A DNA stretch of 64,000 bases from Ascidia mentula (taxonomy: Eukaryota > Chordata > Ascidiacea > Phlebobranchia > Ascidiidae), in the NCBI GenBank assembly GCA_947561715.1, contig OX387201.1, positions 20,598,001-20,662,000 on the forward strand. The letters are read 5' to 3'. The translations under genes were made by a program, and so were the position numbers. Position 1 is the stretch's first letter; each line of letters opens with the position of its first letter. Below, piece by piece: positions 152-64,000 of this stretch. The notes beneath the pieces are model-generated. The model was not told the DNA's origin, searched no databases, and saw only the letters and a program-made list of their open reading frames with translations.

Positions 152-525
152 AAGCTGTTAAGGTCAAGTAACTGAAAATATTTCAAAAACTTGCAAAACT
201 GGACCAAAACTAAATGCCAACGTAACTTCAATGTGAGTCTAGCAGGCCACAAGTTGGAGTAAACCATTCAAATCTGCTTTTTGTTATTCGCATGTATTGG
301 TCATTGCCTTGCCTTCATAACATTACAAAAATACGCAGTCGCGTATGCTATTTGAATTAACATATTTATACTCATCAATTTCACAGCACTGCGGTTAGTT
401 TTGCACTGCGTTTTTTAACACAGCACATGGTAACGCAAAGCTTCTACAAATAATGGCAGTGTTTGTAAAAATATATATGAGTGCAAATGATTCGTGCAAC
501 CAAACACATTTTTACTGTTTTCCAG

Positions 526-1745
526 ACAAAAGTGCGAAATTATTGGATGCGCTTTCAGGATATCTCGAATTTGGACCCGAGGAATACGATCTACTGAGTG
601 AGTAAATGATATGAATGCCAACAGTTTAATGCGTGTTTGTAAACATTACATTTAATTATGTAACAATGGGTGGGTTTGTTACGTCACACAACCATTGTTT
701 GAACCGAACACTCAGTGCAGTTTTTTTCAGTTGTGAAAAAATCTTGTAAAGGAAAGTCGTGTTTATTTCTGTCCTAATATTTTGTGATAATTTAAACGTT
801 TTATATTGGATTGATTTGTTGGTTCTTGTGTTGATTAAATCCGACTTAAACGTGGAGAATTCTGTGCAAGAATAAAGTAAGTTTTATTTTAAGTGATTTT
901 ATTAAAACTGGAAACCAGACATCTGCTTTTTTATAAACTTGTTCCTGTTTTGTTTCAGATTTATTTCTGGATTTTAAGGAAATCCAAAAATGCCATCTAG
1001 AAAAACTCGCCAGGTTTTGTCCTGGGATATTATGTTTTCCCCGAACCCGACTTCACTCATTCGTTGAGGTTTTGTCGGAATTTTTACCAAAAGTTTCAAG
1101 AAACGATTTGGAGCTGGGGATGATGAGTTGCGGCCTGACCTCCGAAGATTTAACGATTATTTGTGAAGCAATAAAAAGAATGAAATACGGGGTTTGTTCG
1201 GTTTTTGTTCATTTTGTGAATAAGTTTTTATTTGATTAAAAGCATTTTTTACCTAAGTTTTCGATTTTAAGAAAAATGACATAAAATATTTTTATTGTAG
1301 TTTAGGGAATAATTTTTGTTTGTGTATTTTTTACTCTTTTCCAGTTTTAATATTTGTTTATTCCTGGTTTAAAGAGCATCAAAACATTTCCTACAAACAA
1401 TGTTTATATTTTAAATAGTTGTGGACTCTCGACCTGATGGGAAACGGCTTTCATGGAAGAGAAGATGGGGAAAAAATTTGTGGGATTTTACCGAAGGTTG
1501 GGGGGAGGTTGGATCTGCGTTACTGCGAATTGGATCCGGATTCGATTAAGATGGTGGAGGACGCATTTGAGAATATGGAAGATCCTGTGAGGATTTATTT
1601 AAAATATGTATTTGTAAATTTTAATAAAATAAAAACTTTTGTGACTTTTCAGCCGGAAGTTTGGGGTTTGTATAATCAGTCCCTCCCCACCTCTGACTCC
1701 AGTGGTTCGGATTCGAGTGATCCTGACTCTAGTGGTTCGGATTGA
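526..1745 (+). CDS. NLR-like protein, LRR-type C-terminal exons (copy A)
   Basis: Four exons join in one frame: 526-597, 959-1191, 1419-1586 and 1653-1745 (TGA stop), all with AG/GT borders. The product is a helical segment (DKSAKLLDAL) followed by leucine-rich repeats with the ribonuclease-inhibitor flavour of NLR proteins (CGLTSEDLTIICEAI, LDLMGNGF, LDLRYCELDPDSI). It ends in an acidic Ser-Asp tail. LRRs of this kind in NLR receptors sense or restrain activation. The 5' part, including any NACHT ATPase, is not present between base 1 and 526, so this is either the tail of a gene starting outside the window or an orphan tail. In copy A the four exons are intact; the copy-B version is damaged. 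An AATAAA lies near 1815. NLR identity is inferred from the LRR style and from the 5' exons at 44615. Confidence 0.5.
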
Positions 1746-3400
1746 AGCAGAAGCTCAACACAAAAACTACCTCATGTTCCTCATAATTATTTGTGTTTTC
1801 GTGACTCCTTAAAAATAAATAAATTTAACAAAAACAAAACTTCCGCCATTTTTTTTTCCGCAGCAGTCGCCAAGACCGAAACTTTAACGATGCCGGTAGG
1901 GTTTTTTAAACGAACAGAAATAAAATTAGGATTGAACACCGGGCCGATTTTTTTGGCAATTAAAATACGTGCAGTTTTAAAAACAAAAATTTACACTTTT
2001 GATTTAAAGATTTAATATTTTAGTTAATATCTGTTTGTAAGTTTAGCACGTTACGACCAACCAATAGATGCGCGAATTTGATAAGTTTTCCAACTTCTGT
2101 CATTTCGTCAAAATTGTTTTTTTAAAACAAAATTAAATATCATGTTCGAATAAACACAAATTGAAGAGATATCACAAAATCAAGACAGCTTATGACAAGC
2201 AACGAATTAACAATTAGGAAAACGTGATTCAGGCTTGGGAAGAGTAATTTAACGTATCCTTTGTAATTTAGTTCACTGGAATCGCTGCTAGTGAGGTGGT
2301 TATAGAGTATTGTCGCCGCACAGCACATGTATATACTAAAAAAGGCCCAAAGCGTATAACTATCTTATGACCGAGAGTTAAAACCAAAGTCATTGTAATC
2401 ACGCGTTCAACGCATGTCCGAGTTGTGATGTCCAATAAAACGACATGGGAAAAAAAGAAGAACCAATTTCCGGTTTAGGTCAATTCCTGATCGGACAATT
2501 TAATAGGAAAAACTAGCCGAGCTGGTGACAGGTGAAAAAATTGTAGCCAGTAGAAGCCACATTATAGTTGTGTTATAAACCATGTAATTTGGGAAATAAA
2601 GCCATATAGGTAACTTAGGCAACAAAACTAACTGCGTAAATCAAGTGAAAATAATTATAGGCATTTCTTTGCCAAAATTTAAACACAAGTACTTTTTACG
2701 CAAATGATAAATAAAGCTTAAATAAACATAACTACTTTTAGTTATTCGGAAAACAAAGTCAACCTAAACATAAACAACCTATTTAGGGCACCTAGATAAT
2801 CAAGCTATATAAATAACTGAAGTAATCGACCAAATCGGCCAACTTCAAGTTGCATTAAAGTTGCGCAACAACTCCAAATAGGGTATCAATACGTGTGGCC
2901 AACCGCAGACTATATAAGCAGAGCGACTAGCGCCTGCCAAATCAGTGTGTTTTAACTGTTGCTGTGTAAGGGTCTAGGCTGTTGGTTCTGCTTTATCGAC
3001 CACTTTTTTCGGACAAGTCGGAGCGAGATATGCAAAATAACCCCACCTGCTGGTATGTTTCAAACTAAAGGCAATGGGTTAACCAGACCCAACGCTCCAC
3101 CAACTGAGCTACGCGATTTCAGAGATTTGAATGTAGTTTATAATGGTCAAGATACACTGGTGAGTCAGCACACAACTTTACTAACGATCTACACATCTCT
3201 ACTACTAATCACACCAAGCAGAAATATATCATGATACTATATGTCAAGGTTAGCTATTGTAGATGAGGTTGCTAAGTACGGGTTTTCACAGTAGAGCGAT
3301 CCTGTCTAGTTCCTGCGTTAGTAATTCGTACAACCACAAAGAACCATGCATTTGCTTGCGGTCGAGTCAAGACATCAGCTTGCATTCATTTTTATTGATT
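1746..3400. other. Intergenic stretch between convergent LRR tail and WDR24 (copy A)
   Basis: No coding exon is supported here. AATAAA-type sites follow the LRR stop (about 1815). A TATATAAG box lies at about 2911-2918, with a T-rich leader after it, and is conserved in copy B. A tRNA-like A-box segment (about 3080-3121, minus strand) is described separately. Copy B carries two extra blocks in the corresponding interval. Confidence 0.6.
3078..3125 (-). repeat. tRNA-like A-box segment (SINE head, copy A)
   Basis: On the minus strand the segment reads GCGTAGCTCAGTTGGTGGAG followed by an anticodon-stem-like GTTGGGTCTGGTTAACC, a clear match to the D-arm/A-box half of a tRNA. No B box follows at tRNA distance, so it is not a tRNA gene. 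The matching copy-B segment (about 49110-49165) continues into an extra GC-rich body that copy A lacks. Confidence 0.5.
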
Positions 3401-6400
3401 TTACAGACAGTGATATCTGCATGTTATAGGAATATCGTTTTTCTGAGATTGTTTTATCCAAGTTGCCACACAGTTGGAATGTCCCCCAAAACTACAGCCT
3501 TGACAATATGTGTAGAGTCCGCGCACTTGAAGTTGACAGTAGAAACACGTGACTGGTTTGTTTTTGTGTTCCGCATCAATGCGTCGGTCACATGACCAGG
3601 GGTTACTCTGGGGCATTCCTCGTTGGCAGACTTGGCAGCCCAGGGTGAAAGTTGAAGAGGATGAGAGAGATTGGATTGCAGGAACTTGGCTCAGTTTTAC
3701 AACCTGGACGAAAATTATTTTAATTGATAAATGCGAAAAATAGTTTAATCTGTTGATGTCCTGGTGCAAGTTTCAAACCTTAAAGTAATTGTATTGATAT
3801 TGCCATAACATAAAATAAAAACTAAAAAATTAACAAGAAAAGAATTAACTGCAAATTGAAACAAAACATACAGTAGTTATTCCACCTGAGCATGTTGTAT
3901 CCATAACCTGTTCTTTGCCAACAAATCAAGGTAGGAGTTTTGCCAATGCTCAACTGTTCTAACATCCATAGGAAGGTTATATGTGGATGGATAGGATGAC
4001 ATTGCAAGCAGCATACACACTGGACTATGCACATCATTCATTCCAGCAAAAAATCTGAAAATACATTGAATACAACACATGTAGCATGTTGAAACCTGTG
4101 AATGTTTTGAGAAAATAAAAAAGTAAATTCAAAACAAGAACTATTTTTGAGTGAATAAACATTCTTGTAAAGACTTTTTACCTATGTACAAGCAGTTGGC
4201 AGATTATTTTATCTCATTGTCTGGTAAGTGTTAGTTCTGTTGTTTTAAAAATATGCTGTTGATGAATTGTTGTATTTCTTTGTCAATTTCAAAAATACGA
4301 TGTTTTGTCAGATTGTTTTGAACTGCACAAACTCACTCTAATTGCTGACAGGCAATCTCTTCTTTAATTGAATCGAGTGGAGCCGGCCAGAGAGTGGGAC
4401 ACACACTGATGACTCCATCTGAGATGTTAAGCTCCTCATCAGCAGGAGATGTTGAGGAAGAAGAATTCATCTTCTTGGTAACGACCTTCTCATGCCACCT
4501 CCCACCGTGAGCAGTCAGGATTCGTTTTTCAGATTCATTTTCAATATTCATTCCAGAAGGTGCATCTATTCGACCAAACTTTGATATCGCGTCCAGTTCG
4601 ATGTCCTGAAAAAGACAGGAGATTGTTTCTTACATCTTTCATTACTTAGGGTGTGGTGCAACCTTAAAACTGTGTTCACAGCAACCATATGTTTAGCAAC
4701 ACAAAACACTGTGGCCTATCTATCTATATATATATATATCAATCACACCTCTCTCTGTTGAAACGCTTCAGTTGGAACAAGATATTCATGCTCTGACAAA
4801 AACTCAGCTTCCGATGTTATTCCACCATAACCAAACCTAAATCATTAAACTAGATTACAGACTATAATTTCCACTACATCAATTTTAGACATCTTGGTGT
4901 TTAATTGTAACACCATTAATTTTGTTGCGGATGCAGCAACAGGAAAGCATGATAATAGATTCTTTTATCAGTTTATGCACAATTGTGTTGCAACAAACTT
5001 TGCATGATTTTATATTTGAGAATAATATCTCTAAACTACCCAGGGTCATCATCTGTCATGTAGAGATCAGGTTCTGATTGTCGTCCCCGAGCGATATCAG
5101 TGAGATAATCTTCTACCTCAAGTCTTCCATCATCAGAACGTTGATCAGCTTCCCCACCATGGATTGCTGAACCATTCAATGCATGCGAACCATGCAGTTC
5201 ATCCTACAGCAAACACAAACCAGTCATTGTGTGTAGAAGCAATCTTGTTAACATTCATATCCAACAATTAGTGATAATCAATATTTGCCATGTTTTGAAC
5301 AAATGCTGCCATAACTTTAGAAAATCATTTTGTTTTTTAAACATCAAACCATGGTCACAAGAATCCTTCGATTCCATTCCCAGAAAAAAACATGGCATAA
5401 TTATATCTATTCCTACAACTTTCTGCATACCAGGCATTTCGCAACTATTTATAAGGTGAAGATCTGTAACAATTGTTTATTAGCACATATTACGTCACCA
5501 AAACCACCTCACCTTTTTCACAGTGAGTGAGTGTCTTTTGTTTTTTGCCTCTGCTTTTTCCAGCTTTTCTGAAACTTCAGGTTGTGATTTGTTTGAATGA
5601 ATCTCTTTGTTGAAAAACACTCCAAGCAATTTCCACGTCCGAGCAACATTACAGAATCCACCTTTCAAAGCAACATCAGAGTTGTCTGTCATAGTGGGAT
5701 AATCATCAAAGTCAGAACTTGGTTTTAAATCAGACTTGGTGCTTGAAAATATTCTGAACTTTGATCTTGAATTAAGAAAGTTGTGTTGTCTTTGAAATGC
5801 AACTGGCGAAGAAGGACTGGAAATATTCAAACCGTCCAAATCAATCACGTCTTTTGATCCAGTCTTCCATCCAAATATTGTTGGTAGTTTTGAAGCAGAA
5901 CCAGTGGGACTCTGTACCCTGGGTGTTGATGCTGTGGCTTGACTTGCGAGGGCGATATGACCACATGAGCTGATGGCAAGTCCACTACTCATGGCCTGCT
6001 TAGCTGGACAAGAAGCGTCAAGTAATGAATGCATCATGAGACGGCCATCTTTCGAACATGACAAAATAAAATTTGGATCTGACTTTTTCCAAACTATTCC
6101 AGAGGGGCTGTCTGTGTGATCCTTAAAATATGTTCGTTTGTTGTTTAAAAAGTAAATTAATCAAAAAACAAATGGTTGTTTGATACAACTACAATTATAA
6201 TTCATACCTGGAAATGAGCAAATGGGACATATTTCCTATGCAGATGCCAAATGTTCACGCTGAATTCAAGCATCATAGATATAGTGGCAAGTTGCTCGGG
6301 ATGGTAGGGTCTCCATTTAACCGAAGCTACGGACGACATGGTTGGAACATTGTTTATTTCTTTCTCCCTGTTGTTTTCAATCGACCAAACCTGGAATGCG

Positions 6401-8284
6401 ACAAGTGGAAACATTGGAAAACAATATTTAACACGGACAATGATTAGATCCGTTATCAGCAATGACATGAAAACCACCTTTCACACGCCCTCCAGTGCAA
6501 AAACAGAGTAAAAAAATTATTCGTGTTATTACAATCACTCACCTTAACCATGTTATCACGCCCTCAAGTGGCAAGAGTCATTTTGTGATCTGGATCAGGG
6601 TGCCAGTCGAGAGTATACACAGATCCCTTGTGTGCGATAAACTGGTGAACGTAACCTGTAGGTCGCCTGTAATCCCATATCTAGTAACAACAACAACCAA
6701 AATTAACATGAAAACTTTTGGTGCAATATTCTAATTTGGTCTCACTAGAATGCTGAGTTTGCATTAATACTGGGAACATTTTTAGTATCACAAGCACTGG
6801 TTTACTGTTTCAATGGAAGGACATACCAACTATTTCAAAAAAACTACATTTTGAATTGGTTTCATATGTTACAATATAACAGTGAGGGGATTTAACAAAA
6901 ATCAATTTAATGTGAGATTCCTTGAGTCGGTTTGAGTTGTTTTATTTATTCTATGACATCCATGTGTTTCTGGCATTATTGTTTTATTATATTTCCATGG
7001 TAACATGTTCACAACACGACAGCATTAAATATCCAGATTCACTTGAAAATTGGCTGCAGGTATTTTTATATAAGTTAGCACACCCCTAAAACTTACTTGT
7101 ACATAACCATTATCGAAGCTAGCAGCAAAAATAAAATATTCATGAGGATTGAACTGAACACTTCTCACGCCATCAGCTTTGCTTTGAAACGTGTAGGTAC
7201 TTTCCCTTCTCCTCAAATCAAACAGCTTCATCGTTCCGTCCTTAAAAAACAAATGATGCAGTGTTGCTACTAAGCTTGTCATTTGAATAAACACATAATA
7301 TATATATATTTTTATAAACTTTACACTTCGCTTTGACTTGTTTGCAGCCAAAAGCAAAATAACACTTATAATACAGAAAATTTCTAACAGAAAAATGTAC
7401 GTGCTCCTGTAAGACGTGTTACAAGTTACATTGAGCACCAAACTAAACTTTATCGATCAAGATTTGTGATTGCGAAAAAGGCTTGTGTCACATAAAAATG
7501 CAAATTTGAACAAACTTGTCTTATGGTCTTGACAGGTCCCATCTATATAAGAAACACATTTTTATTTAAAAACTATACATATATATAACACCTGTGATCA
7601 AAGCAAAAGATTTCCTTCCGAGTTGTCAAACGAAACTTTTGTGACCGTGCGACGATGTTCAGACAATATAGCGAGCTTCTTCTCACGACCAGGAGTGTTT
7701 AAATCCCAAGCTTCAACCACTCCATTAGTAGCAGCAGTTGCAATCAAATTTTCATCCATGGGACTCCAACCCACGTCAGAAAAACTCATGTTCAAACCCT
7801 GAAATAAAAAATAATCATTTTTATCAATTGTGTATGTGTAAACTAATTATGCTGATGAACAGCAATTGTAATCTTGAAAAATTAGGTCAAGCATGCAGCC
7901 ACAGGTAAAAGCTAATTTGATTTCAATAACTTATGATGTATTATTTTGTTGGGTGGTAACTGGCTTTGGCCAGTCATGAGCAACGAAAAATACCAATATG
8001 CCTCCCTTAAAATACAACAGTAATTGCAAAAACCTACACTTATAACATGAAACGAAACACAATCAGCACTATCAAACTCAGTGGCACACATTAATTCCAT
8101 CGGAGCAAACCTGTTTTCTTCCAACATGAAGATTAAGGTGCTCGCTGAAACCATTAACCTCATCAACATGATAAATTTTCAACAGAGACCGTCCAGCGAT
8201 GACCACTTTACTGTTGTCCTTACTGAGGCAAAGTGCATTCACTGCTGTTCCAACATCTATTGAAACAGCTTTGTTTCTCTTCAT
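3401..8284 (-). pseudogene. WDR24: WDR24-like gene, copy A (GATOR2 subunit), degenerate
   Basis: WDR24 is a GATOR2 subunit that acts on the lysosome to promote amino-acid signalling to mTORC1. Exons on the minus strand: 8111-8284, 7600ish-7798, 7097-7240, 6543-6680, 6208-6390, 5513-6121, 5040-5203, 4749-4836, 4337-4605, a small one near 4182-4220, 3886-4054 and 3401-3703. The start is ATG at 8284 (MKRNKAV), which is the shared start with copy B. Residues IAGRSLLKIY, ATAATNGVV, KLFDLRR and WKRPY-type segments follow the WD40 propeller order. The last exon encodes the Cys/His-rich RING/zinc end (CQVCQRGM, CFYCQLQV, YCQGCSFGGH). Damage: TGA at 7598-7600 where B reads LSGSQ, TGA at 6564-6566 replacing a Gly codon of ATGGRD, and a 105-base in-frame deletion at 5685/5686 removing 35 codons next to the conserved LCSHN segment. 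The exon near 4200 has unresolved borders. Confidence 0.88.
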
Positions 8285-9099
8285 AATTTCAGAAACCTGC
8301 TTACGGTTAACTACATAAGTACAGTAGCAGCAAGTTCTTAAACAAACTAATTCCCGAGAAAATGTAAACAAAACAAATTCGTCTCTTGCACGCTTCAGTG
8401 ATTTTCCAACACGAACAACGATTTTATCCTCGCAACCGCAACCAGAACATTAACTTTTCCAATGCTGATTGCTGACTTGCAATAATTACCTAATTTTTTT
8501 GTACACACAAAATAGACAGATTGAATCAAGTTGATATACATTTTGCATGAACGAGCAATATTCTATATTACAAATATTCGGTTGGAAGCCAACAATTTAT
8601 TGTAGTAAAGCTACTCGATTTCTACAAAAATTTAAGTTAAATATGCATATGTCTAACTTTGTCAAACATTCTTTACTAAGTACACACGATGCAATTATGA
8701 GTAAAAAAATGTTACATCAGTGGAAGAATCTGGGATGTTCACAGTTTTATAAATCTCACAAAACGTGTCACTTCAAAAGGGAATGCAAGAACATAAAAAA
8801 ACAGCATCGTATCTTTCACATAATACATGAAGCATACAAATTTTCACAGTGAAATATTTACAAACTACACGAACTTGTCGCGCAACTGCATACAATGTTT
8901 TGAACCTGACAAGAAAAGAAAAACAGGAAACTGTTGTTCTAAAATAAGTAAAACTTGGGAACAGAAAAGTTTTTGTTTCTTTGCAGAAACTTTTCTGTTG
9001 GCCGGGGAAATCGAACGTGCTCTCATCGTCCGGTGAGAAGCTCTGAAAAAATCCACATTTCAGTGTTCCTGTATTTTAACGTACACTACGAGGCATTTC
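8285..9099. other. Intergenic interval between WDR24-A start and ANKAR-A end
   Basis: This holds the upstream region of WDR24 (minus strand) and the downstream region of the ANKAR-like gene. An open frame of about 70 codons at 8639-8852 (+) stays open in copy B (55581-55790), but it has no recognisable domain and its conservation follows from the duplication. A hairpin lies at 8960-8999. Copy B has two insertions in this interval. Confidence 0.6.
8960..8999. other. 13-bp stem hairpin downstream of ANKAR-A
   Basis: AACAGAAAAGTTT at 8960-8972 is the exact reverse complement of AAACTTTTCTGTT at 8987-8999, with a short loop. Copy B keeps both arms (about 55899-55936) although the loop has changed. 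It sits about 100 bases past the ANKAR stop on the minus strand, so it could be a 3' UTR or processing structure. Function unknown. Confidence 0.4.
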
Positions 9100-12000
9100 C
9101 TACCCGTTAACATGTAAAGTGTTTCCCCTCGTTTGCGCTGTTTGAGGTCTTGGCGGCCCTGAATAAACAAAGGTTGATATTTTTATGATTGAAATAAACC
9201 CCAGAACTTTTGCTGCATGAAAGCTTGTGTCTAAGCTCAGTAGAAATGTACGTTAACACAAATTGTAACGAACTTACTCCTCTTTTCTTTAACAATCGGC
9301 AAACCGATGGTCGCCTGTCGTTTAAACTCGGCTACAAACTCATCAGACACTTTTCCATCTTCACCCAAATTGTCTGTAAGAGTGACGTAAAGGCCTTCAG
9401 TCGCTCTACATGACGTCATCAACTCTCTGCTCGCCGTTCGGTTGAAAGATAAATATCCTAAAAATGTCATCATAAAGTTTAAACCACGTGGAAATAGATA
9501 ATTGTCAATGTAATACATAAGGTAATAGGGAAACCAAGTGCATGTTTTCCTAAACAATCTCACGTTATTTTGTCACCCGACAACTCCATAGAAATCATAT
9601 ATAGACAACCAACCTAATGCCTGGGCAGCAGTTTGTCGAACCAACTGATTCTCCGACTTCACTTTACCAAGAAGTTTCTCCACAGCGCCGCAAGTGACGA
9701 TGGCTTCAGGAACGCCCGCCCTCGTGTGGGCGAGTGACGCAAGATAATCCGCTGTAATACGTCATCATTACGTCATCTTTCTTTCATGTGAAACTACAAA
9801 TCACCCAAAAAGTCGAATATATATTTCAACACGTACCTGCCATTGCCACTACGTCATCGTTGACGTCATCGAGGAAGTTGACGAGCGTAATGACGCCTCT
9901 AGCGGAAGATTCGACAAGGGAAGTGTTTGTTATGATGCGAGCGAGAACAACCAGCTGTTAAATACACAACGGCTATAACTCAAAACCACTTCCTCCACGC
10001 TTTCGTCCCACATAAACCACAAGGTTTATATTATTGCATGAGGTTTTCATCTCACAAAGCTGTCTGAGATACAAGATATTTCTTTCCAACTTTACCTGAA
10101 AAGCTGCGGTAGTTTTAAAAATCGGATCCTTGCACCGAAATAAATCCTCAAACGTTATGAGGCTCAAACCACCCAAGCGTGAAATCTGTTGTTGTTGTTG
10201 GATTCGGTTGAATGCGAACATGGTTAGTGCGGATACTGCTTGTAATTTCACCGCCTTAGAAAGAACAAAACAATTGTTAGTAAAAATTACTTCCAATTCG
10301 TTCACACACAAACTTGCACACGCAATTAACTTTATCGCCAATTATTTGTACGTAAATTTCAATAGAAAGTAAATACCCTGGCTTAAAGCAAGCTTCGCAG
10401 ATTCAACAGGAGTTGTGGGAAACAAGTAGTAGAGGTGGGGATTACCCACCCGGTACTATATATTGAGCATTCTTTATTACATCACAAAGGTTTTACAACA
10501 AACCCACCATACTGGGCGAGTTGCAGACTTGCAGAATAATTTCGAATCCGAATCCGTCCAATTCGTTCAGTTTGTCTTCGTTCTCCTGACAACCGCTAAC
10601 AAGACACGATAAACAATGGAGAAGATCGACCTTTAGAACAAACATCTTTTGTTTAATCGCGACTCTATGACGTAATTTCTGGCATCGCGTCACCTGCATC
10701 TTCTCGTCACGTGACGTTTTCCACACTCTGTTGACCAGCAGCTCAATGGCGCCCTCTTCGGCAATTGTGAGTTGAGAGTTCTTGTTGTTTATGTTGGCTA
10801 CACCTGGACCCATGTGAAAATAAAGTGAAATAATAATCAACAAATTTATCAAAAACAAACTTTAGGAAATTCACTGATTTTACAAACACAAAATATTGGA
10901 TTCTGAACGAAAGTTAAAGCTCCCTCTAATGCTTTAGAAAACAAAAAAGCTTCACGCGCAGCCATTGTCGTTATGATAATACCTGAAATGCACGTTACAG
11001 AGGTAGGAAAAATTGTCACGCACCAAAGCACATCTTGTTGATAGCATCCAGTGTTCCCATGACGACTTTCCGACTGGTTTTCTCCAACCTGAGCAACCGG
11101 ATGAGCGGAGGGATAGTGTTGTCACGTGACAAACGCGCCTGACTCGATGAACTTTTCCAGCTCCATGCTGCCACCGCCTGGCAACCTACAAACGAGTCAA
11201 TACATTCCAGCCATTGACATCATAAAATCGTTTTGCTAAAATACTCCGCGAAGAATCTTTTTAGCGACAACTTCCACTGATTGGGATCTTGTGTTTCCTG
11301 AACTCATTTTGTTTTACCGACATACACTTTTTTATTTTTAATATTATTCGTTTGTTTTATTTCAAATATCAGAAATAAAGCAACTTTTTACCGATCAACT
11401 GAAGCGTGTCGGATTTGCTGAGTAACATGTCAATGATTTGACTCGTCCCGATTCTGCGAGCAATTGCTCTCTGCTGCTCAGGGTGGTGACCAGCCAACGA
11501 CCACAGTGCGCATGCCCCGCGTTCCTTCACCTCATCCGACCAAATCTGTTACGAAAATGACAGTTGATGGAAATCTTTACATTGGGTTGATCAATATTTT
11601 TTTTCAAAATGGAAAGGAAAAATCAAAAAATGCCGTAAAAGAGTTCCACTAAAAGTCACAAGGTTTCAATAAAAAAATTCTTTAAACTTGACAAACTTGA
11701 TTTTTGTAACTTCATTCTCTACTTAATTGAAACAGACGACACAGAGCGGTCGGAGCTTCTTCTAACGACGCCTCGTGTTGGGCTCCCTGGTTCCCTCTAG
11801 TAATGCATCCAACAGCAAGCGCAGCTTTCATCTGAGCGGGAATGCAATGACCTCGCAATATCGCCACCAGCGGCGCTAAGACTCCGATTTGAACAAACTC
11901 GTTCTGTGCAAAATCTTCGGTTAAATTTTCAACTTTCTGGCATTTAGGAAACAACAAAAAAGACCAATTTTAATATTTCCGTAAATCTTTTGTAAAAACA

Positions 12001-14231: not shown

Positions 14232-14242
14232 CTGTTTCAACA

Positions 14243-17087: not shown

Positions 17088-17123
17088 CTAAAGTGGAAGC
17101 ATAGAAAGTTTTGTCCCACGTAT

Positions 17124-24730: not shown

Positions 24731-24808
24731 CAGAAGCAACGTAACCATTTAAGTTAACACAAGGTTTATAACTTCTATTACAATAAATAATATTCTCTTC
24801 AGTTGTCG

Positions 24809-54725: not shown

Positions 54726-54731
54726 AATTTC

Positions 54732-54967: not shown

Positions 54968-56036
54968 AAACCTGCTTACGGTTAACTACATAAGTACTGT
55001 AGCAGCAAGTTCTTAAACAAACTAATTCCCGAGAAAATGTAAACAAAACAAACTCGTCTCTTGCACGCTTCAGTGACTTTCCAACACGAACAGCGATTTT
55101 ATCCTCGCAACCAGAACATTAACTTTTCTGGAAGATACTTTTACACCGGGTCACAATGTTTTTTCCAAACTTGATCCACATTTAAACCTATGCAACATAG
55201 AAATCTGTGCGAATATTAACGCTACGATTTCGTGTATTATTTCAAGTTAAATTTACAAACAAAAATAACAGATGGTGGCCCTGTTTAAACCTAATCATCA
55301 AAATTTGCACGGAATTATGTTTCACACAGACTTATACGTGGATCAAGTTTGGAAAAAACTTTGTTACCCAGTGTAGTAGCATTTTCCAACTGTTCTAATG
55401 CTGATTGCTGACTTGCAATAATTACCTAATTTTTTTTTGTACACACAAAATAGGCAGATTGAATCAAGTTGATATACATTTTGCATGAACGAGCAATATT
55501 CTATGTTACAAATATTCGGTTGAAAGCCAACAATTTATTGTAGTAAAGCTACTCGATTTCTACAAAAATTTAAGGTAAATATGCATATGTCTAACTTTGT
55601 CAAACATTCTTTACTAAGTACACACGATGCAATTATGAGTAAAAAAATGTTACATCAGTGGAAGAATCTGGGATGTTCACAGTTTTATAAATCTCACAAA
55701 ACGTGTCACTTCAAAAGGGAATGCAAGAACATCAAAAAACAGCATCGTATCTTTCACATAATACAGGAAGCATACAAATTTTCACAGTGAAATATTTACA
55801 AACTACACGAACTTGTCGCGCAACTGCATACAATGTTTTGAACCTGACAAGAAAAGAAAAACAGGAAACTGTTGTTCTAAAATAAGTAAAACAAAGGAAC
55901 AGAAAAGTTTTATTTGTTTGTAGAAACTTTTCTGTTGGCCGGGGAAATCGAACGTGCTCTCATCGTCCGGTGAGCAGCTCTGGAAAAATCCACATTTCAG
56001 TGTTCCTGTATTTTAACGTACACTACGAGGCATTTC
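54968..56036. other. Intergenic interval between WDR24-B start and ANKAR-B end
   Basis: Apart from the MITE at 55129-55387, this mirrors 8293-9099, including a hairpin at about 55899-55936. No exon is supported. The frame at 55581-55790 matches 8639-8852 but has no recognised domain. Confidence 0.55.
55121..55395. mobile_element. MITE, probably hAT-type (copy B only)
   Basis: The ends are inverted repeats of about 50 bases: left TGGAAGATACTTTTACACCG then GGTCACAATGTTTTTTCCAA ACTTGATCCAC; the right end is its inverse with about ten differences. Flanks AACTTTTC (55121-55128) and AACTGTTC (55388-55395) match at 7 of 8 bases, and copy A has the empty site AACTTTTCCAATGCTG at about 8451. The length is about 259 bases and it is non-coding. 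Confidence 0.8.
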
Positions 56037-59000
56037 CTACCCGTTAACATGTAAGGTGTTTCCCCTCGTTTGCGCTGTTTGAGGTCTTGACGGCCCTGAA
56101 TAAACAAAGGTTGATATTTTTATGATTGAAATAAACCCCAGAACTTTTGCTGCATGAAAACTTGTGTCTAAGCTCAGTAGAATGTACGTTAACACAAATT
56201 GTAACGAACTTACTCCTCTTTTCTTTAACAATCGGCAAACCGATGGTCGCCTGTCGTTTAAACTCGGCTACAAACTCATCAGACACTTTTCCATCTTCAC
56301 CCAAATTGTCTGTAAGAGTGACGTAAAGGCCTTCAGTCGCTCTACATGACGTCATTAACTCTCTGCTCGCCGTTCGGTTGAAAGATAAATATCCTAAAGT
56401 TTAACCACGTGGAAATAGATAAATGTCAATGTAATACATAAGGTAATAGGGAAACAAAGTGCATGTTTTCCTAAACAATCTCACGTTATTTTGTCACTGA
56501 TTCTCCGACTTCACTTTACCAAGAAGTTTCTCCACAGCGCCGCAAGTGACGATGGCTTCAGGAACGCCCGCCCTCGCGTGGGCGAGTGACGCAAGATAAT
56601 CCGCTGTAATACGTCATCATTACGTCATCTTTCTTTCATGTGAAACTATAAATCACCCAAAAAGTCGAATATACATTTCAGCACGTACCTGCCATTGCCA
56701 CTACGTCATCGTTGACGTCATCGAGGAAGTTGACGAGCGTAATGACGCCTCTAGCGGAAGATTCGACAAGGGAAGTGTTTGTTATGATGCGAGCGAGAAC
56801 AACCAGCTGTTAAATACACAACTGCTTTTACTTAAAACCACTTCCTCCACGTTTTCGTCCCACATAAACCACAAGGTTTAGATTATTGCAGGAGGTTTTA
56901 ATTCTTCTCACAAAGCTGTCTGAGATACAAGATATTTCTTTCCAACTTTACCTGAAAAGCTGCGGTAGTTTCAAAAAATCGCACCGAAATAAATCCTCAA
57001 ACGTTATGAGGCTTAAACCACCCAAGCGTAAAATCCGTTGTTGTTGTTGGATTCGGTTGAATGCGAACATGGTTAGAGCGGATACTGCTTGTAATTTCAC
57101 CGCCTTAGAAAGAACAAAACAATTGTTAGTAAAAATTACTTCAAATTCGTTCACACATAAACTTGCACACGCAATTAACTTTATCGCCAATTATTTGTAC
57201 GTAAATTTCAATAGAAAGTAAATACCCTGGCTTAAAGCAAGCTTCGCAGATTCAACAGGAGTTGTGAGAAACAAGTAGTAAAGGTGGGGATTACCCACCC
57301 GGTACTATATATTGAGCATTCTTTATTACATCACAAAGGTTTTACAACAAACCCACCATACTGGGTGAGTTGCAGACTTGCAGAATAATTTCGAATCCGA
57401 ATCCGTCCAATTCGTTCAGTTTGTCTTCGTTCTCCTGACAACCGCTAACAAGACACGATAAACAATGGAGAAGATCGACCTTTAGAACAAACATCTTTTG
57501 TTTAATGGCTACTCTATGACGTAATTTCTGGCATCGCGTCACCTGCATCTTCTCGTCACGTGACGTTTTCCACACTCTGTTGACCAGCAGCTCAATGGCG
57601 CCCTCTTCGGCAATTGTGAGTTGAGAGTTCTTGTTGTTTATGTGGGGTACACCTGGACCGATGTGAAAATAAAGTGAAATAATAATAAACAAATTTATTA
57701 AAAGCAAACTTCAGGAAATTCACTGATTTTACAAACACAAAATATTGGATTCTGAACGAAACCAGTATTTTCTAATAGTGAAAAAAAACCAACACCAAAC
57801 GTTCAAACTCCCTCTAACGCTTTTGGAAACAAAAAAGCGTTCATGCGCAGCCATTATCGTTATGATAATACCTGAAATGCACGTTACAGAGGTAGGAAAA
57901 ATTGTCACGCACCAATGCACATCTTGTTGATAGCGTCGAGTGTTCCCATGACGACTTTCCGACTGGTTTTCTCCAACCTGAGCAACCGGATGAGCGGAGG
58001 GATAGTGTTGTCACGTGACAAACGCGCCTGACTCGATGAACTTTTCCAGCTCCATGCTGCAACCGCCTGGCCACCTACAAACGAGTCAATTCCATTCCAA
58101 CCATTGACATCACAAAATCGTTTTGCTAAAATACTCCGCGAAGAATCTGTTTAGCGACAACTTCCACTGATTGGGATCTTGTGTTTCCTGAAGTCATTTT
58201 GTTTTACCGTCATACACTTTTTTGATTTTTAATATTATTCGTTTGTTTTATTTAAAATATCAGAAATAAAGCAACTTTTTACCGATCAACTGAAGCGTGT
58301 CGGATTTGCTGAGTAACATGTCAATTATTTGACTCGTCCCGATTCTGCGAGCAATTGCTCTCTGCTGCTCAGGGTGGTGACCAGCCAACGACCACAGTGC
58401 GCATGCGCCGCGTTCCTTAACCTCATCCGACCAAATCTGTTACGAAAATGAAAGTTGATGGAAATCTTTACATTGGGTTGATTAATGTTTTTTTTTTTGC
58501 AAAATGGAAAGGAAAAATCAAAAAATGCCGTAAAAGAGTTCCACTAAAAGTCACAAGGTTTTAATGAGAAATTTCTTTAAACTTGACAAACTTGATTTTT
58601 GTAACTTCATTCTCTACTTACTTGAAACAGACGACACAGAGCGGTCGGAGCTTTTTCTAACGACGCCTCGTGTTGGGCTCCGTGGTTCCCTCTAGTGATG
58701 CATCCAACAGCAAGCGCAGCTTTCATCTGAGCGGGAATGCAATGTCCTCGCAATATCGCCACCAGCGGCGCCAACACTCCGATTTGAACAAACTCGTTCT
58801 GTGTAAAATCTTTGGTTAAATTTTTAACTTTCTGACATTCAGGAAACAACAAAAAAGACCAATTTTAATATTTCAGTAAATCTTTTGCAAAAGTAACACC
58901 GGCCAAACAAAATGATTACTGCAAGCAATATAAACAACGACTTCACTTCTTGACTGAAAATATTCAATTCTTCAACAGGTTCAAAATCCCACAAGTGTGG

Positions 59001-61079
59001 ATTAATATTTAGGTCACAATTCACAACAAGCTTCATTCCCACACCCGTTATACCTGGTTGTCCTGGTTGTCATCGCAAACAGCGGCAATCGCGTCAGCAG
59101 TCGCCGTCTGAAGCGAATCGTCCTTCACCGTGAGAAAATCAACCAGGAACCCGGAAGCTCCACACTCCATAATTCTCCGCTGGATGTCGCCCGCACCACT
59201 CGTGTCTCCCCGACAGAGTGAAGCCAGGGTGTTGATGACGTTGACAAGCACATCCACAACCTGGAACAATACAAGCTGGAAAGTTACAATTTCCTCCCAT
59301 GGGAAGTATACGACGGACGTGAGGCATCGGTTTTAAACCAACTGCAATAAATTTAATCCAGAATTCCCCTCCTGTTATTTCTGACTCACGTCAACTTGGA
59401 GGAGTTCAACTAACGGCCGGATACCACCATGTGCGACGATGCGTGACGCGTTGTCATCCACGTGAGCGAGATCCGAGAAAACGACGGAGGAACGCGATTG
59501 AATCTCGCATCTCTCATCCGTAGATTCCAGATCCTGGTGCTCCGGATCAAGATCGTGGGATGCCATGGGTTTTAACAGAGAAATAAGAGCTGCGAAAAAT
59601 AGTCCCCGATTGAAAAGAAACAAGTCTGACCAATCGACGGCGTATTCAATATATTTTACACTTAACTTAATCAAATGCTGTACGATAAGCAGACATTGCA
59701 CAAATTACATAATTTTTCGCAAAGTTACTGCAGACATGAACAGAAAACGTGATACATAAAATAGCACCGATAAAATCATGAGGGTTTCCGAGTCAGACAC
59801 ACAATTTCTCTTACGTTTTTACGTGATTTTCAAAAAAATACTGAACAGGTATTCAACTACGATTTCTATCCTGACAAAAGTGAAATATTAACCACGTGAC
59901 TTAACACCTACTTGGAATCGCGCCAGCGTTCGCAATCTCAACTCTGACGTCATCCTGTTCCGACATGAGGCAAATAACAGAACAAGCGAGTGATCTTAAG
60001 GGAGAAGTCGTCTCGTCTTCCAAATCCTTCCCTAAACCTTCAACACAAATGTTCACTGAGTCCTCGACCACAAAGTTCGATGGTTTGGGATTTCTGGAGT
60101 TACAACTTGGACTCCAACCACAAACACACACTTAGTGCATCCGCGTAAAGATTTAACGAAGCTTATTGCGGAAATAAAAACGTTGCAGCGACATTTAGCG
60201 GCAAACAACACACGTCTTTTAGTGAGTGCCAGTCAGGTAGGTCTCATCCGTGCAGCTTTTGGGGCCAGTGACGAAACATCCGGGCGAACACCACGCACAG
60301 TCGCCGGGATAGCTTTAAATTTAATTTATCCGACGAAAAACATGTGCCCACATTGACCACAGTTAAAAACGAACCAGAATCAAGGGACATGGTTCCTGAC
60401 TTGGGTCTTCTTCTTGCGCTCCGGAGCAAATTAACAAGAGGAGGAACTGCATCAGCCGCCAACAGAGGGCGCCAGTAAGTCGGTGTGCGATGAAGCAGAA
60501 CCTCGAGGCAACGAAGCGAAGCGTCTTGGCGGGAAACGAATCGGAATTCCAGCATTTCTTAAATAGAGAATTTGTTTTTTATTGTGAGGTTGCAATAATG
60601 TTAGGGAATAATAAATAAATAAATTGTCACATTTTCCACACACAGAGTTTCCGACTTATTTCGAAAATAAACAAAATTTTCTCAAAATTACAACATCAAC
60701 CGATGGAACCAAAGTTCCTTAAAGAGTCATCCGCCCTGCTAATAAATTCACAAATACACACGCATATACGCAAAAAGCATCTTCAGCGTAATTTCAGTAC
60801 GTAATCCTGGTGCTATTACGCAACAATGACGTCACTCACCAACCAAAGATGGCCACACGTTTAAACTTTCCTCGTCATCACCATCCTTCCTCCCCTTCAA
60901 ACTAATCAAATATTTGATGACGTCAGTGTGGTAACTGAGGGCTGCTCTTTGCACGGGACCGTCATTGTTGACGTCACGCGATCGCACGGTGGCGCCAGAC
61001 TTGATGAGAAATTTGAGGCAATCGAGCGCTCCACTTGAGGCAGCAACGAGCAGTGGTGTAGCGTTGTCCCTGTTTCAAC
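56037..61079 (-). pseudogene. ANKAR: Ankyrin and armadillo repeat (ANKAR-like) gene, 3' part, copy B, degenerate
   Basis: It has the same exon plan as copy A. The ankyrin exon here is fully open (TPLLVAASSGALDCLKFLIK, SGATVRSRDVNNDGPV, AALSYHTDVIKYLIS), which confirms the ankyrin assignment. The armadillo exon that is interrupted in A is intact (VINTLASLCRGDTSGAGDIQ). The splice donor lost in A is present at 58621. Damage specific to B: a 7-base deletion near 56980 that shifts the frame after FEDLFRC, and a 69-base deletion at 56497/56498 that removes the end of an armadillo exon (RQTAAQALG in A) with its splice donor. As in A, nothing upstream of the single ankyrin exon is found, so the gene is 5'-truncated. 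Confidence 0.72.
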
Positions 61080-61089
61080 AACATTGGTG

Positions 61090-61190
61090 AAGGCGCTCGA
61101 CGTTATATTAAGCACAAAAAGCCTGATCGGGATTCATGGCAAGGAGAGTCAGGGTTCGAACCCCGGTGTGGCAAAAAATCAGCAGCTGTT
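61090..61190 (+). repeat. tRNA-like SINE (copy B)
   Basis: This is the counterpart of 14243-14342. It keeps the more canonical GATCGGGATTC and GTGTGGCAAAAAA end, matching the nested SINE at 33717-33822. Confidence 0.6.
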
Positions 61191-61528
61191 TTTCATTAAA
61201 TTCCCATTTTCGTGACGTATTTGTTTCATTGATGACGAAATTAGCAGTGGTTGGATACCGGGTTAGTTTAAATAAGTGCATATACACAGGGATGAGTCAG
61301 ACCTAACCCGAATATCGTACGTGGAATGCGCTCCACTCAGATTGTAACAACATCGCTAGGAATCACACACCTGTTTATATAATAATGTCGCTGTTTCTTT
61401 TGAGACCAATTAGAATTGATGACGCAACTCTGGCAATATATGATAAATGTGCGGCAAGTTGAATGTAAAAATAAACTAGGTTGATATGTACTGGTTAGTA
61501 CAGTAATTATGGATGTGTGTTAGATCTG

Positions 61529-61770
61529 CGGATACATGCACGCACTGTTTCAATTTATAAAGTCTTATCAGTGCAGCTGGTGACTGTGGCACTGGGGCAG
61601 CTTGGATACTGTCAGGGATTTTAGATTTTAACTTCGTGGTGATTTTAACTTCGTGGTGTCTGTGGTGTAAGTGTGCATGGTAGTCTACAAGGTAGCCCAG
61701 TGCCACAGTCACACCAAACTGCACTTATGAGACCTTATAGGATGAAATATTGTGTGCAAGTGTCTGCAGT
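61529..61770. mobile_element. Fold-back/MITE-like element (copy B)
   Basis: This is the counterpart of 14690-14916. The right arm CACTTATGAGACCTTATAGG remains; the left arm has lost several bases, and a short duplicated TTTTAACTTCGTGGTG appears in the centre. Confidence 0.5.
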
Positions 61771-61974
61771 TCTCATGGATTATTATGGCTCTTTACTGCT
61801 TGTAAGGAAGAAACACACATTGTGCTTGTTTTGTATTTGGACCGATTCTGTTTGAAGTCAGAACACTGCACTTCATTATAGATTTGAAATTTAAGCAGGT
61901 TTAGTGCATTTTTGAAACCTTATTTTGATAACCCAACCCCCGTTTTGCCATTATTTTGCCCAAACATATATATC

Positions 61975-62350
61975 TTATATGCACGTCTTATGCCCGCGAC
62001 AGATCCCAGTATGGAAACTCGTTATCACACGATCATCTAAAATCCACCAACCTGTGATCCACTCAGCGAAAGATTTCCATGAGAGTTGTGACACTTTCGT
62101 GACCATGTGACCAACATTCAGACAATATAGCAAGCCAGAAGTGTTTAAATCCCAAGCTACAACCGCTTCATTAGTAGCAGCAGTTGCGGTCAAGTTTACA
62201 TCCACAGGACTCCAACCCATGTCAACTCATGTTTAAGCCCTGAAATTAAAAAAAATGCTAATTATGTGTTAGGACAAACATGTTGATGACCAGGTACTGT
62301 GATCATGTCAAATGTTAGGTTTAGTGAATTATGTCAACTGTATGATTTTA
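61975..62350 (-). pseudogene. WDR24: Isolated WDR24 exon-2 fragment (copy B)
   Basis: The minus-strand frame reads MGWSPVDVNLTATAATNEA and VVAWDLNT, nearly identical to the copy-A fragment at 15090-15480 and clearly more diverged from the WDR24 exon at 54.0-54.2 kb. It is thus an older fragment carried inside the duplicated block. Confidence 0.85.
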
Positions 62351-62674
62351 TTGGGTGATGACTAGCAACATGTTACAACACAAACTTGTTGATGTTTGTT
62401 GTTCAAACAAACAATTACCTGAATACTCAGAGTTATAGGGTGAGAAATTCTTACCACAAACAAATCAAAGTTTGGGTCAACTTCTGACATTGTAAATGCA
62501 AGTTGAATTATAACCACAATTACTTTAATCATTATCACAGCTTTGTTTTGACCCCAAACTTATTGTACCTCATTTTTGCCTTCATTTTAACACATACCGC
62601 AGGTTCAAGTATTTTCCCATGGATCATCATGAGATCACAAACAAAATAACATAAATTTGTCTTATCAGACTTAC

Positions 62675-63965
62675 CAGAAGCAGTGTTTCCACAAACTATT
62701 TGAGCAGTCGGTTGGGATTTAAGAACTGCAAATAAATCATTAAACGAAGTTGGTCGGATCCATGAAGTTCCACCATTAAATAATTCAAGCCTGGTTGCTT
62801 TTAGTTGCACTAACCTGACCTTTTAAGGTCCTAAGAAACAAAAACTGTTAAATATTTCTTGAGATACAATGTTGTTTAATTAAAGTATTTGTTGGTAACA
62901 GAAAAGGAATCAGGAAGTTTGTACATTTTATTGCATGTTGTACCTCAATGTCTGAACATTTTTCCAGCAGTTTTGGGTCAGCATCTGTTGCAGAAGATTT
63001 CATTGCATCAAGTATGGGACGATATCCTGTACAACGACAAATGTCTCCATCAAAACTATCTTTGCTCGGTTGGAGTTGGATCTTCTGATAAAAGGCTAAA
63101 AAGACGAGAGGGTTACTTTGTGGTTTTATTGGCAACTACAAATAACCAAGCATATACTGCAATGATTTAATATAATAAGCACAGTTGTGTTTGAAAGGCC
63201 AAATAAACATACTCTGAATAACCCACCACAAATTTTCTGTGTATTCTAATTGATAAGCGAACCTGTACATATTCATGACGAAGCCAGGAGTGCAATAACC
63301 ACACTGTGAACCATCGAACTCAGCTACACGAGTTTGTATTGCATTGTAGCCATCTCTTCGTGACCCAAGTCCTTCCACAGTTGTTACTCTGCACCCGTCC
63401 ACTGAAGCAAGCAGGCTGAGGCACTAAATACGTTTGTCAATACATAAATTTTTTTTAATGTGCATTTTTATGTCAAACACAGTAAAATTAGTTAATGAAT
63501 AGGAAGCATCTGCATATCAGTTATGATTAAACAACAAACCAAGACATAGAGTTTAACTTTCAACATTCACCGAGTTTACAGCTTCTATCTTTCCAGGAGT
63601 TTTCTCCATGGCAACCACGCAACATCCACATCCACTCCCTCATAACACATCACTTTTGTTCCAGTGAGTCCTGGTTGTGATCGGAGCCATGAGTTCAGGC
63701 TCATCATCGGATCCACATCATCAACTGAACAAAGCAAACAGGTTTACAACAACTAATAATTTATACTTCAATCTTTAACAAACATGTCCGCATTTTTTGT
63801 GTTATCTGTTGCCAACAACTAAAATTAACTAAATTAAAATGCATTAAAAAGCTAAAAAAAGAAATGCAGAAGATTTTTGCATATAAGCTTCAACAAACCT
63901 GTATACAGTTGTCTATTTACATGGAATGATATTGAGGTGCTTGTCACTGTACCAAGTATAACCAC
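62675..63965 (-). pseudogene. Aldehyde oxidase/xanthine dehydrogenase, first exons only (copy B)
   Basis: Exons: 63899-63965, 63571-63724, 63263-63423, 62944-63095 and 62675-62819. Exons 3 and 4 keep the second cluster motifs (GSQCGYCTPGF, DICRCTGYRP). Exon 5 is open here (GGTSWIRPTSFNDL, AQIVCGNTASG), unlike A. Exon 2 has a 2-base insertion inside the first 2Fe-2S motif (near 63631), which shifts the frame. The ATG used in A is GTG here (near 63947), so the start may also be lost unless translation begins in an upstream exon. As in A, the FAD and Mo-cofactor exons are absent. Confidence 0.86.
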
Positions 63966-64000
63966 CTGACGTGGATGCATAGAAAGTTTTGTCCCACGTA

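What the first reader, a model, noticed from the sequence alone, without database searches (positions are those of the whole stretch)
265..64000. A direct duplication of at least 17 kb flanks 28 kb of single-copy DNA
Copy A (265 to at least 17123) and copy B (45573 to window end) are collinear through exons, introns and intergenic DNA. The left breakpoint is sharp: the two copies lose similarity immediately left of 265 and 45573. Copy B adds several datable insertions. The 28-kb spacer carries different genes.
Basis: seen in the sequence. Interest (0 to 1): 0.75.

Follow-up and report, generated by a model that had tools for sequence, protein, structure and literature searches.

The report
Hypervariable immune-receptor gene array in sea squirt
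The two long similar stretches are neighbouring units of a large repeated block of immune-receptor-like genes in a sea squirt, whose copies differ most strongly at the spots predicted to touch a target, so the block looks like an inherited set of different receptors rather than one simple duplication.

Summary
The A/B similarity is real: 16,551 aligned sites, 95.75% identical. The reading as one two-copy duplication around single-copy DNA is wrong. The assembly matches Ascidia mentula, a tunicate (longest scaffold 27,920,005 bp). The window is part of a ~1.5 Mb array with 22 copies of the left-end gene region; two spacer pieces tested are multi-copy too. The sharp left "breakpoint" is a ~2 kb deletion in copy B that removed a NACHT exon. 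The unit's left-end gene is an NLR (NACHT-LRR receptor). All 20 full-length NACHT exons in the array lack stops. In 12 in-frame LRR copies (14 of 22 read), all 14 hypervariable codons lie among 20 predicted strand-surface codons of 133: pN/pS there 0.477/0.124, elsewhere 0.052/0.050, introns 0.041. All 12 surfaces differ. WDR24 and other genes look like passengers; the WDR24 exons searched were intact only in this array and a related C1 segment. Most likely: an amplified, diversified innate-immune receptor repertoire. Expression and binding are untested.

The parts
265..17122 (.). Copy A: part of one array unit (the unit starts left of the window, near C69:20594239)
45573..64000 (.). Copy B: part of the next unit, cut by the window end; matches to spacer pieces continue beyond it (C69:20663023-20664168 and 20666943-20669803)
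43560..45569 (.). Left part of unit B: homologous to C69:20594239-20596248 (97.1%) and C69:20469702-20471706 (96.8%); shows the unit does not begin at 45573
526..597 (+). NLR gene, copy A: short exon between the NACHT exon and the LRR exons (splice sites read by eye)
959..1191 (+). NLR gene, copy A: LRR exon 1 with two hypervariable strand motifs
1419..1586 (+). NLR gene, copy A: LRR exon 2 with two hypervariable strand motifs
1653..1745 (+). NLR gene, copy A: last exon (P-E-V-x-G-L, then a Ser/Asp-rich tail, stop)
44913..45017 (+). NLR gene, copy B: N-terminal exon (35-aa stretch found at 21 places in the array)
45366..45569 (+). NLR gene, copy B: 5' remnant of the NACHT exon; the rest, with the P-loop, is deleted at 45569/45570. 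The full exon of unit A lies outside the window at about C69:20596044-20597350
46300..46938 (+). NLR gene, copy B: LRR exons; the first carries a 13-bp frameshift insertion, and the region is identical (920 of 920 sites) to that of the unit near C69:20.862 Mb
3404..8291 (-). WDR24 (GATOR2 subunit) passenger gene, copy A; 105-bp in-frame loss in the 246-aa exon
49452..54758 (-). WDR24 passenger gene, copy B; 246-aa exon open
9240..13733 (-). Armadillo-like repeat gene, copy A (repeat name by eye; the 2 frames of it tested in Pfam gave no match)
56040..61074 (-). Ankyrin/armadillo-like repeat gene, copy B (ankyrin part PF12796 E 2.1e-8; armadillo part by eye)
16025..16547 (-). Xanthine-dehydrogenase-like [2Fe-2S] exons (PF01799 E 7e-12 and 1.6e-6), copy A; the same frames in copy B at 62851-63423
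19130..20778 (+). Papain-family (PF00112, E 7.7e-12 and 9.9e-6) gene in the 'spacer'; a third frame, 19437-19703, gave no Pfam match; multi-copy in the array
32428..33189 (+). Retrotransposon reverse transcriptase/RNase H fragment (PF17919 E 1.4e-24) in the spacer
52984..53300 (.). hAT-like short element with an 8-bp target duplication (read by eye), shared with the unit near C69:20.48 Mb
55127..55387 (.). Only B-extra segment of 40 bp or more that is private to copy B among four units compared

Best explanation
The window is a slice of a ~1.5 Mb array on C69 (probably chromosome 5 of Ascidia mentula) of repeated units; spacing was about 76.9, 47.7 and 47.3 kb in the stretch read. The units carry a NACHT-LRR (NLR) gene plus passenger genes. 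SHOWN: 22 LRR-region copies; 20 full-length NACHT exons without stops, 17 of them 96-100% alike; LRR exons whose residue differences concentrate at codons predicted to face outward on the LRR strands (20 of 133 codons carry 53% of them), far above intron divergence. INFERRED: units multiply and are lost by unequal exchange; exchange or conversion keeps flanking sequence alike; selection for new binding surfaces diversifies the LRR strands. Each copy would be an intracellular receptor with its own target, whose binding lets the NACHT domain assemble a signalling complex. WDR24, the ankyrin/armadillo-like gene, the XDH-like exons and the protease are carried along. Copy B is a dead receptor (NACHT deleted, LRR frameshifted).
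For: Array: 43 of 44 matches of one 1.4-kb block in C69:19.91-21.43 Mb; 22 LRR regions at 87-100% identity. NLR: NACHT PF05729 E 1.7e-17; best PDB match 'NLR family protein 1', then NLRP3 and NLRP5. Intactness: 20 of 20 full-length NACHT exons lack stops, against 16 of 27 full-length open WDR24 246-aa exons (split rows merged by eye). Fisher P is 0.001, or 0.02 if the two units without a full NACHT exon count as failures. Diversification, 12 in-frame copies: pN/pS over 133 LRR codons 1.94 (bootstrap 1.28-3.12); strand positions 0.477/0.124, rest 0.052/0.050; NACHT (11 copies) 0.77 with no codon showing 5 or more residues. No strand position is invariant (0 of 20), against 67 of 113 others; 20 of 133 codons carry 53% of pairwise residue differences. 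Divergence: LRR exons 10-11%, neighbouring introns 3-4%. Closest pair: 2 of 351 intron sites but 28 of 398 exon sites differ. 12 of 12 in-frame copies have different surfaces. In LRR exon 2 the same positions vary among 3 copies of a sister cluster.
Against: No expression, binding or population data. Gene models were read by eye. LRR identity is weak by profile: the two LRR frames of copy A gave no Pfam match at E 0.01; spliced, PF00560 E 0.0022 and PF13516 E 0.021 are below the curated cut-offs; ribonuclease inhibitor E 0.0084, and the best PDB entry bears an unrelated name. No Pfam N-terminal domain. The 20 strand positions were set from the motif after the variable columns had been seen, so P 1e-14 is descriptive. 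LRR codons outside them have pN/pS 1.04, so they look nearly neutral rather than constrained, and they hold 47% of the residue differences. NACHT pN/pS 0.77 (0.55-1.12) is not strong purifying selection. The last exon ends early through small indels in 6 of 14 regions read. Homogenisation is not NACHT-specific: units A, B and 20471 are 98-99.8% alike in most of the ~1.6 kb upstream too, while unit 20548 is 90-96% there. NACHT and intron distances correlate (0.90), as simple descent would also give. Only 14 of 22 LRR regions and 11 of 20 NACHT exons were read; search counts are lower bounds.
Confidence: 0.8

Rival explanations
1. A single two-copy segmental duplication flanking unique DNA.
For: Collinearity of A and B.
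Against: 22 LRR-region copies, multi-copy spacer pieces, homology left of the 'breakpoint'.
Confidence: 0.02
2. Assembly artefact: haplotype contigs or mis-joins create the apparent copies.
For: Ascidians can be very heterozygous (recalled). A C1 segment is collinear with an inverted C69 segment with a constant coordinate sum, which could be a misplaced allele.
Against: A diploid gives at most two haplotypes, but 12 of 12 in-frame copies differ. The published assembly reports 74x HiFi, QV 64.9 and 1.2% duplicated BUSCOs. No N in the 207 kb read.
Confidence: 0.05
3. The amplification is driven by something else (WDR24 dosage, or a selfish amplicon of the kind recalled for mouse R2d2 or HSR), and the NLR is a passenger.
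For: WDR24 is in 27 places, 16 with the 246-aa exon fully open, with pN/pS 0.32 in 8 copies over 147 codons. No intact copy of the WDR24 exons searched was found outside the array and its C1 relative.
Against: WDR24 copies are interrupted more often than NACHT exons. The diversified part is the LRR. Sister NLR clusters recur on C69:16.87-19.08 Mb and C71, and the WDR24 246-aa exon has no match in either.
Confidence: 0.12
4. The LRR differences are mere relaxed decay of duplicated genes.
For: 2 of 14 LRR regions carry a frameshift and 6 of 14 last exons end early. LRR codons outside the strand positions have pN/pS 1.04.
Against: Relaxation cannot give pN 0.477 at strand positions against intron divergence 0.041. 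The 20 NACHT exons have no stops.
Confidence: 0.06
5. The strand codons are varied by a dedicated process (templated exchange of strand-sized pieces, or directed mutation) rather than by selection on ordinary mutations.
For: Exon divergence barely follows intron divergence (r 0.23); 6 of 21 differing codons in the closest pair are multi-base changes. Strand-sized motifs recur in different combinations (by eye).
Against: Third codon positions at strand codons vary less (0.199) than first and second (0.544, 0.489), the mark of amino-acid selection. Ordinary gene conversion that homogenises introns while selection keeps old exon variants would look the same.
Confidence: 0.12

Closest known systems
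Zebrafish NLR-B30.2 family, chromosome 4 (PMC4852459, passages seen)
   Same: Large NLR family in genomic clusters, many near chromosome ends; NACHT domains kept alike within groups, for which gene conversion is proposed; other gene families interspersed.
   Different: There the LRRs are described as 'not particularly variable' and the B30.2 domain varies. Here the gene ends after the LRR and a short tail, and the LRR strands are the variable part.
Plant highly variable NLRs (PMC8226289, abstract and outline seen)
   Same: Predicted specificity residues cluster on the LRR surface.
   Different: Defined there by allelic diversity within a species; here shown among paralogues of one assembly. 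Animal NACHT instead of plant NB-ARC (recalled); very few repeats.
Sponge NLR expansions, e.g. Dysidea avara (PMC12909245, passages seen)
   Same: Large NACHT-LRR repertoire, many members without a recognised N-terminal domain (class NLRX).
   Different: There spread homogeneously over 15 chromosomes; here 20 NACHT exons at 90-100% identity in one ~1.4 Mb stretch with strand-concentrated hypervariability. The word stem 'hypervariab' and 'positive selection' have 0 hits in that paper.
Ascidian NLRs (PMC11508797, passages seen)
   Same: Ascidian NLRs reported there lack a CARD and have only NACHT-LRR or NACHT.
   Different: No array, expansion or hypervariable surface is described in the passages seen.

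Membership tests
Animal NLR (NACHT-LRR) | NACHT domain | tested here: met
   PF05729 E 1.7e-17, 64.2 bits against a cut-off of 26.7; PDB matches to NLR proteins
Animal NLR (NACHT-LRR) | C-terminal leucine-rich repeats | tested here: inconclusive
   No Pfam match for single frames of copy A; spliced, PF00560 E 0.0022 and PF13516 E 0.021, both below curated cut-offs; ribonuclease inhibitor E 0.0084; four xxLxLxx-like strand motifs by eye
Animal NLR (NACHT-LRR) | N-terminal CARD, PYD, Death or BIR domain (absent in class NLRX) | tested here: not met
   No Pfam match up to E 10 for the N-terminus spliced by eye; PMC12909245 counts NACHT-LRR without such a domain as bona fide
Highly variable NLR (plant-style) | High-variability residues on the LRR surface | tested here: met
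   14 of 14 codons with 5 or more residues fall in 20 strand positions of 133, 12 in-frame copies; surface position inferred from the motif, no structure made, positions not chosen blind
Highly variable NLR (plant-style) | High allelic diversity within the species | not testable with these tools
   One assembly only; alternate haplotype not held
Two-copy segmental duplication | Exactly two copies and a unique spacer | tested here: not met
Gene-conversion donor cassettes (VLR or chicken-Ig style, recalled) | Most copies are incomplete donors around one expressed gene | tested here: not met
   Against 22 LRR regions there are 20 full-length NACHT exons and the N-terminal exon at 21 places; expression not tested
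Zebrafish NLR-B30.2 | C-terminal B30.2 domain | tested here: inconclusive
   Reading frame ends after a short tail at 1745 in copy A; no B30.2 model was run downstream

The most novel reading that the evidence does not exclude
A tunicate germline mechanism exchanges strand-sized LRR pieces among array members, or varies their codons, faster than descent allows. This would produce a combinatorial, inherited repertoire of NLR binding surfaces, an innate counterpart of lamprey VLRs, possibly differing between individuals. It rests on exon divergence being nearly independent of intron divergence (r 0.23; 2 of 351 intron but 28 of 398 exon sites in the closest pair) and on recurring strand motifs (by eye).
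Probability: 0.12. Interest if true: 0.85.

Novelty: new variant of a known kind. Interest (0 to 1): 0.68.

Why it matters
[quoted passage not shown] That tunicate immunity review has 0 hits in its main text for NLR, NOD-like and NACHT. This assembly holds at least 148 NACHT-encoding places (union). One array shows a plant-like pattern of conserved NACHT and hypervariable LRR surface, unlike zebrafish NLRs, whose LRRs are reported as not particularly variable. If expressed, it is a natural set of related receptors that differ at about 20 surface residues, which would allow direct tests of NLR specificity. No description of this was found in the held papers (NLR searches; listings, with passages only where named); most subscription papers are not in that library.

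Tried and rejected
Rejected: two-copy duplication; haplotype artefact (22 copies, 12 distinct surfaces). No tRNA (ARAGORN, bacterial code) or Rfam match at gathering scores in the window.

Considered and dropped: the C1:9589191 hit as an ancestral WDR24. It is a lone 68-aa fragment in the 10 kb read. The zinc exon is found only in the array, at C1:15.076 Mb and as fragments at C69:14.99-15.01 and 19.66-19.72 Mb (three further hits at E 0.16-0.73 on other contigs disregarded).

Lead not followed: the N-terminal exon has a Gln/Asn/Ile-rich stretch that reminded me, from memory, of RHIM or amyloid signalling motifs. Pfam gave nothing. It is array-specific: 21 places at E up to 5.5e-4, plus two weak C2 hits at E 1.8. 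I make no claim.

Rows dropped before counts: the pN/pS counts exclude B and the 20.862 unit (frameshift), leaving 12 of the 14 regions read. One search's divergence table excludes B only. One search compares four units. In LRR exon 2 of two copies the alignment gap was shifted to codon boundaries before counting. One search prints 2 'stops' in the 12 copies; these are the two gap codons, as one search shows no stop in them. In one search WDR24 copy A (an in-frame 105-bp loss) was counted as not open. The NACHT exons compared were fetched at equal length and compared without alignment. One search used coordinates typed from the lists.

Not done: codon-model tests, formal conversion tests, trees, structure prediction (the spliced LRR is not one open stretch of window DNA).
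Full report
What the window is. The window is C69:20598001-20662000 of a 195.8 Mb assembly in 79 contigs. The mitochondrial contig C79 has AGA/AGG in COX1 where glycine is expected (from memory of COX1), as in the ascidian code. Contig C1 is 27,920,005 bases long, exactly the longest scaffold of the Ascidia mentula assembly kaAscMent1.1 (PMC11109543, first of three parts read: 197.0 Mb, 9 chromosomes, 74x HiFi plus Hi-C, QV 64.9). C69 (22.34 Mb) is then probably chromosome 5 (22.35 Mb in that table). The held copy is slightly smaller than version 1.1, so the version is not certain.

The observation. Copies A and B align over 16,551 sites at 95.75% identity, K2P 0.044 (blocks). But the block 6867-8291 has 44 matches, 43 of them between C69:19.91 and 21.43 Mb and one on C1. 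The two spacer pieces tested are also repeated across the array. The left-end gene region has 22 copies between 19.9 and 21.29 Mb. Of the 21 NACHT hits in the array (20 full-length, one partial), 17 lie on the plus and 4 on the minus strand, so part of the array is inverted. In the 207 kb read without any N, units begin near 20469.7, 20546.6 (extrapolated), 20594.2 and 20641.6 kb, that is spacings of 76.9, 47.7 and 47.3 kb. Search lists are capped, so counts are lower bounds.

The left breakpoint. DNA left of 45573 in B (43560-45569) is 97.1% identical to DNA 2-4 kb left of copy A's edge, outside the window. Between lies ~2 kb present in A and in two other units and missing in B. It holds an exon with a NACHT domain (PF05729 E 1.7e-17; about C69:20596044-20597350). 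So the sharp edge is a deletion in B that removed the core exon of a receptor gene. B's LRR exon also has a 13-bp frameshift, shared with the unit near 20.862 Mb, whose LRR region is identical over 920 of 920 sites.

Insertions. Seven segments of 40 bp or more are extra in B and two in A. Six of the seven occur in one or both of the two other units compared; only 55127-55387 is private to B. One (52984-53300) has the 8-bp target duplication and ends of a hAT-like short element, by eye.

The NLR gene. Exons on the plus strand: a short N-terminal part (array-specific 35-aa exon at 21 places), the NACHT exon, a short exon (526-597 in A), LRR exon 1 (959-1191), LRR exon 2 (1419-1586) and a tail exon (1653-1745). 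Splice sites were read by eye. The array has 20 full-length NACHT exons, 17 at 96-100% and three at 90-91% protein identity, none with a stop, and one partial. NACHT pN/pS over 11 of the 20 is 0.77 (bootstrap 0.55-1.12), which is not strong purifying selection. The tail exon ends early through small indels in 6 of 14 regions read.

Hypervariable LRR. I read 14 of the 22 LRR regions; 12 are in frame. Mean divergence is 3-4% in the introns between the exons and 10-11% in the LRR exons. Over 133 codons pN/pS is 1.94 (1.28-3.12). At the 20 positions x of four xxLxLxx motifs it is 0.477/0.124; in the rest 0.052/0.050, that is 1.04, so the remainder looks nearly neutral. All 14 codons with five or more residues are among those 20. 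None of the 20 is invariant, against 67 of the other 113, and these 20 (15% of codons) carry 53% of the pairwise residue differences. I set the 20 positions from the motif after seeing the alignment, so the hypergeometric P (1e-14) is descriptive. First, second and third codon positions there differ at 0.544, 0.489 and 0.199, introns at 0.041. The closest pair of copies differs at 2 of 351 intron sites and 28 of 398 exon sites; over all 66 pairs the two divergences correlate weakly (r 0.23). In that pair 21 codons differ, 4 of them synonymously. All 12 in-frame copies have different strand residues. In LRR exon 2, the only part fetched, three copies from a related cluster (C69:18.53-18.64 Mb) vary at the same positions.

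LRR identity. The profile evidence is weak: no Pfam match for the single frames of copy A, sub-threshold LRR_1 and LRR_6 for the spliced piece, and a weak ribonuclease-inhibitor match (E 0.0084), ranked below a chain labelled tubulin. The case rests on the motif, the order NACHT then LRR, and the variation pattern.

Homogenisation. In windows of 400 bp, units A, 20471 and 20548 are 98-99.5% identical from the NACHT exon into its intron, 91-95% in the two windows with the LRR exons, and 90-99% elsewhere. The high identity is not confined to the NACHT exon: A, B and 20471 stay at 98-99.8% in most of the ~1.6 kb upstream, where 20548 drops to 90-96%. This fits patchy exchange or conversion that spares the LRR exons; I did not test it formally, and NACHT and intron distances correlate (0.90), as simple descent would also give.

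Passengers. On the minus strand lie WDR24 (PDB matches to the GATOR2 subunit; no Pfam match for its 221-aa exon), a gene with ankyrin repeats and armadillo-like repeats by eye, and xanthine-dehydrogenase-like exons (PF01799). The spacer carries a papain-family gene and a retrotransposon fragment. The WDR24 246-aa exon is at 27 places including one on C1, 16 of them full-length and open (split rows merged by eye); pN/pS in 8 copies (one from C1) over 147 codons is 0.32. No intact copy of the two WDR24 exons searched was found outside the array and the C1 segment, so the cell's WDR24 presumably comes from this locus. That may explain why some copies stay under constraint (inference).

Genome context. 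Two searches with 95 scored places each, of 306 and 317 candidates, give a union of 148 distinct NACHT-encoding places, a lower bound that may include NACHT proteins other than NLRs. A sister cluster of 22 places with 64-69% identity lies at C69:16.87-19.08 Mb (one of them with a stop), and 50 places on C71 appear.

How it most likely works. Shown: amplification, open NACHT exons, strand-concentrated variation. Inferred: unequal exchange makes and removes units; selection for new binding surfaces diversifies the LRR; each receptor senses a different target and signals by NACHT assembly. I put 0.8 on the diversified receptor array; the signalling step is from general knowledge of NLRs.

Compared with what is known. 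Zebrafish has a large clustered NLR family, but with LRRs described as not particularly variable and a variable B30.2 domain (PMC4852459, passages). Plant hvNLRs show variable residues on LRR surfaces (PMC8226289, abstract and outline). Sponges have large NLR sets (PMC12909245, passages). Ascidian NLRs are reported without CARD (PMC11508797, passages), and a tunicate immunity review has no hit for NLR (PMC5465252). Nothing on this array was found (NLR searches; listings only unless named above). I rate it a new variant of a known kind.

Noticed in passing
C1:15.076-15.121 Mb and C69:21.300-21.345 Mb: A segment on C1 is collinear with an inverted array segment on C69 with a constant coordinate sum (36420996, off by one at the WDR24 end) and equal or near-equal scores: a very recent inter-chromosomal copy or a misplaced allele. 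No NACHT or LRR hit on it is listed.
   Followed up: partly
C71:0.68-0.95 and 12.7-19.7 Mb; C69:16.87-19.08 Mb: Further large NLR clusters: 50 places on C71 plus 12 more, and 22 on C69. Hypervariability was checked only in LRR exon 2 of three copies of the C69 sister cluster.
   Followed up: partly
window 3404-8291 and 49452-54758: WDR24, a GATOR2 subunit: no intact copy of the two exons searched was found outside this array and its C1 relative.
   Followed up: partly
C69:20597400-20597950 (left of the window): The intron after the NACHT exon holds tRNA-like sequence arranged as an inverted repeat (by eye), shared by three units read.
   Followed up: no
window 44913-45017: N-terminal NLR exon encodes a Gln/Asn/Ile-rich stretch reminiscent (from memory) of amyloid signalling motifs; no Pfam match.
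   Followed up: partly
window 35500-43900: A cluster of imperfect ~0.5-1 kb repeats (about 84-88%) inside the spacer, with a 349-bp tandem repeat at 38722-39370.
   Followed up: no
window 25520-31039: ORFs resembling (by eye) a CUB-like domain and a transmembrane helix, perhaps another passenger gene.
   Followed up: no
C69:19.66-19.72 and 14.99-15.01 Mb: Degenerate WDR24 zinc-exon fragments outside the array, hinting at older rearrangements.
   Followed up: no
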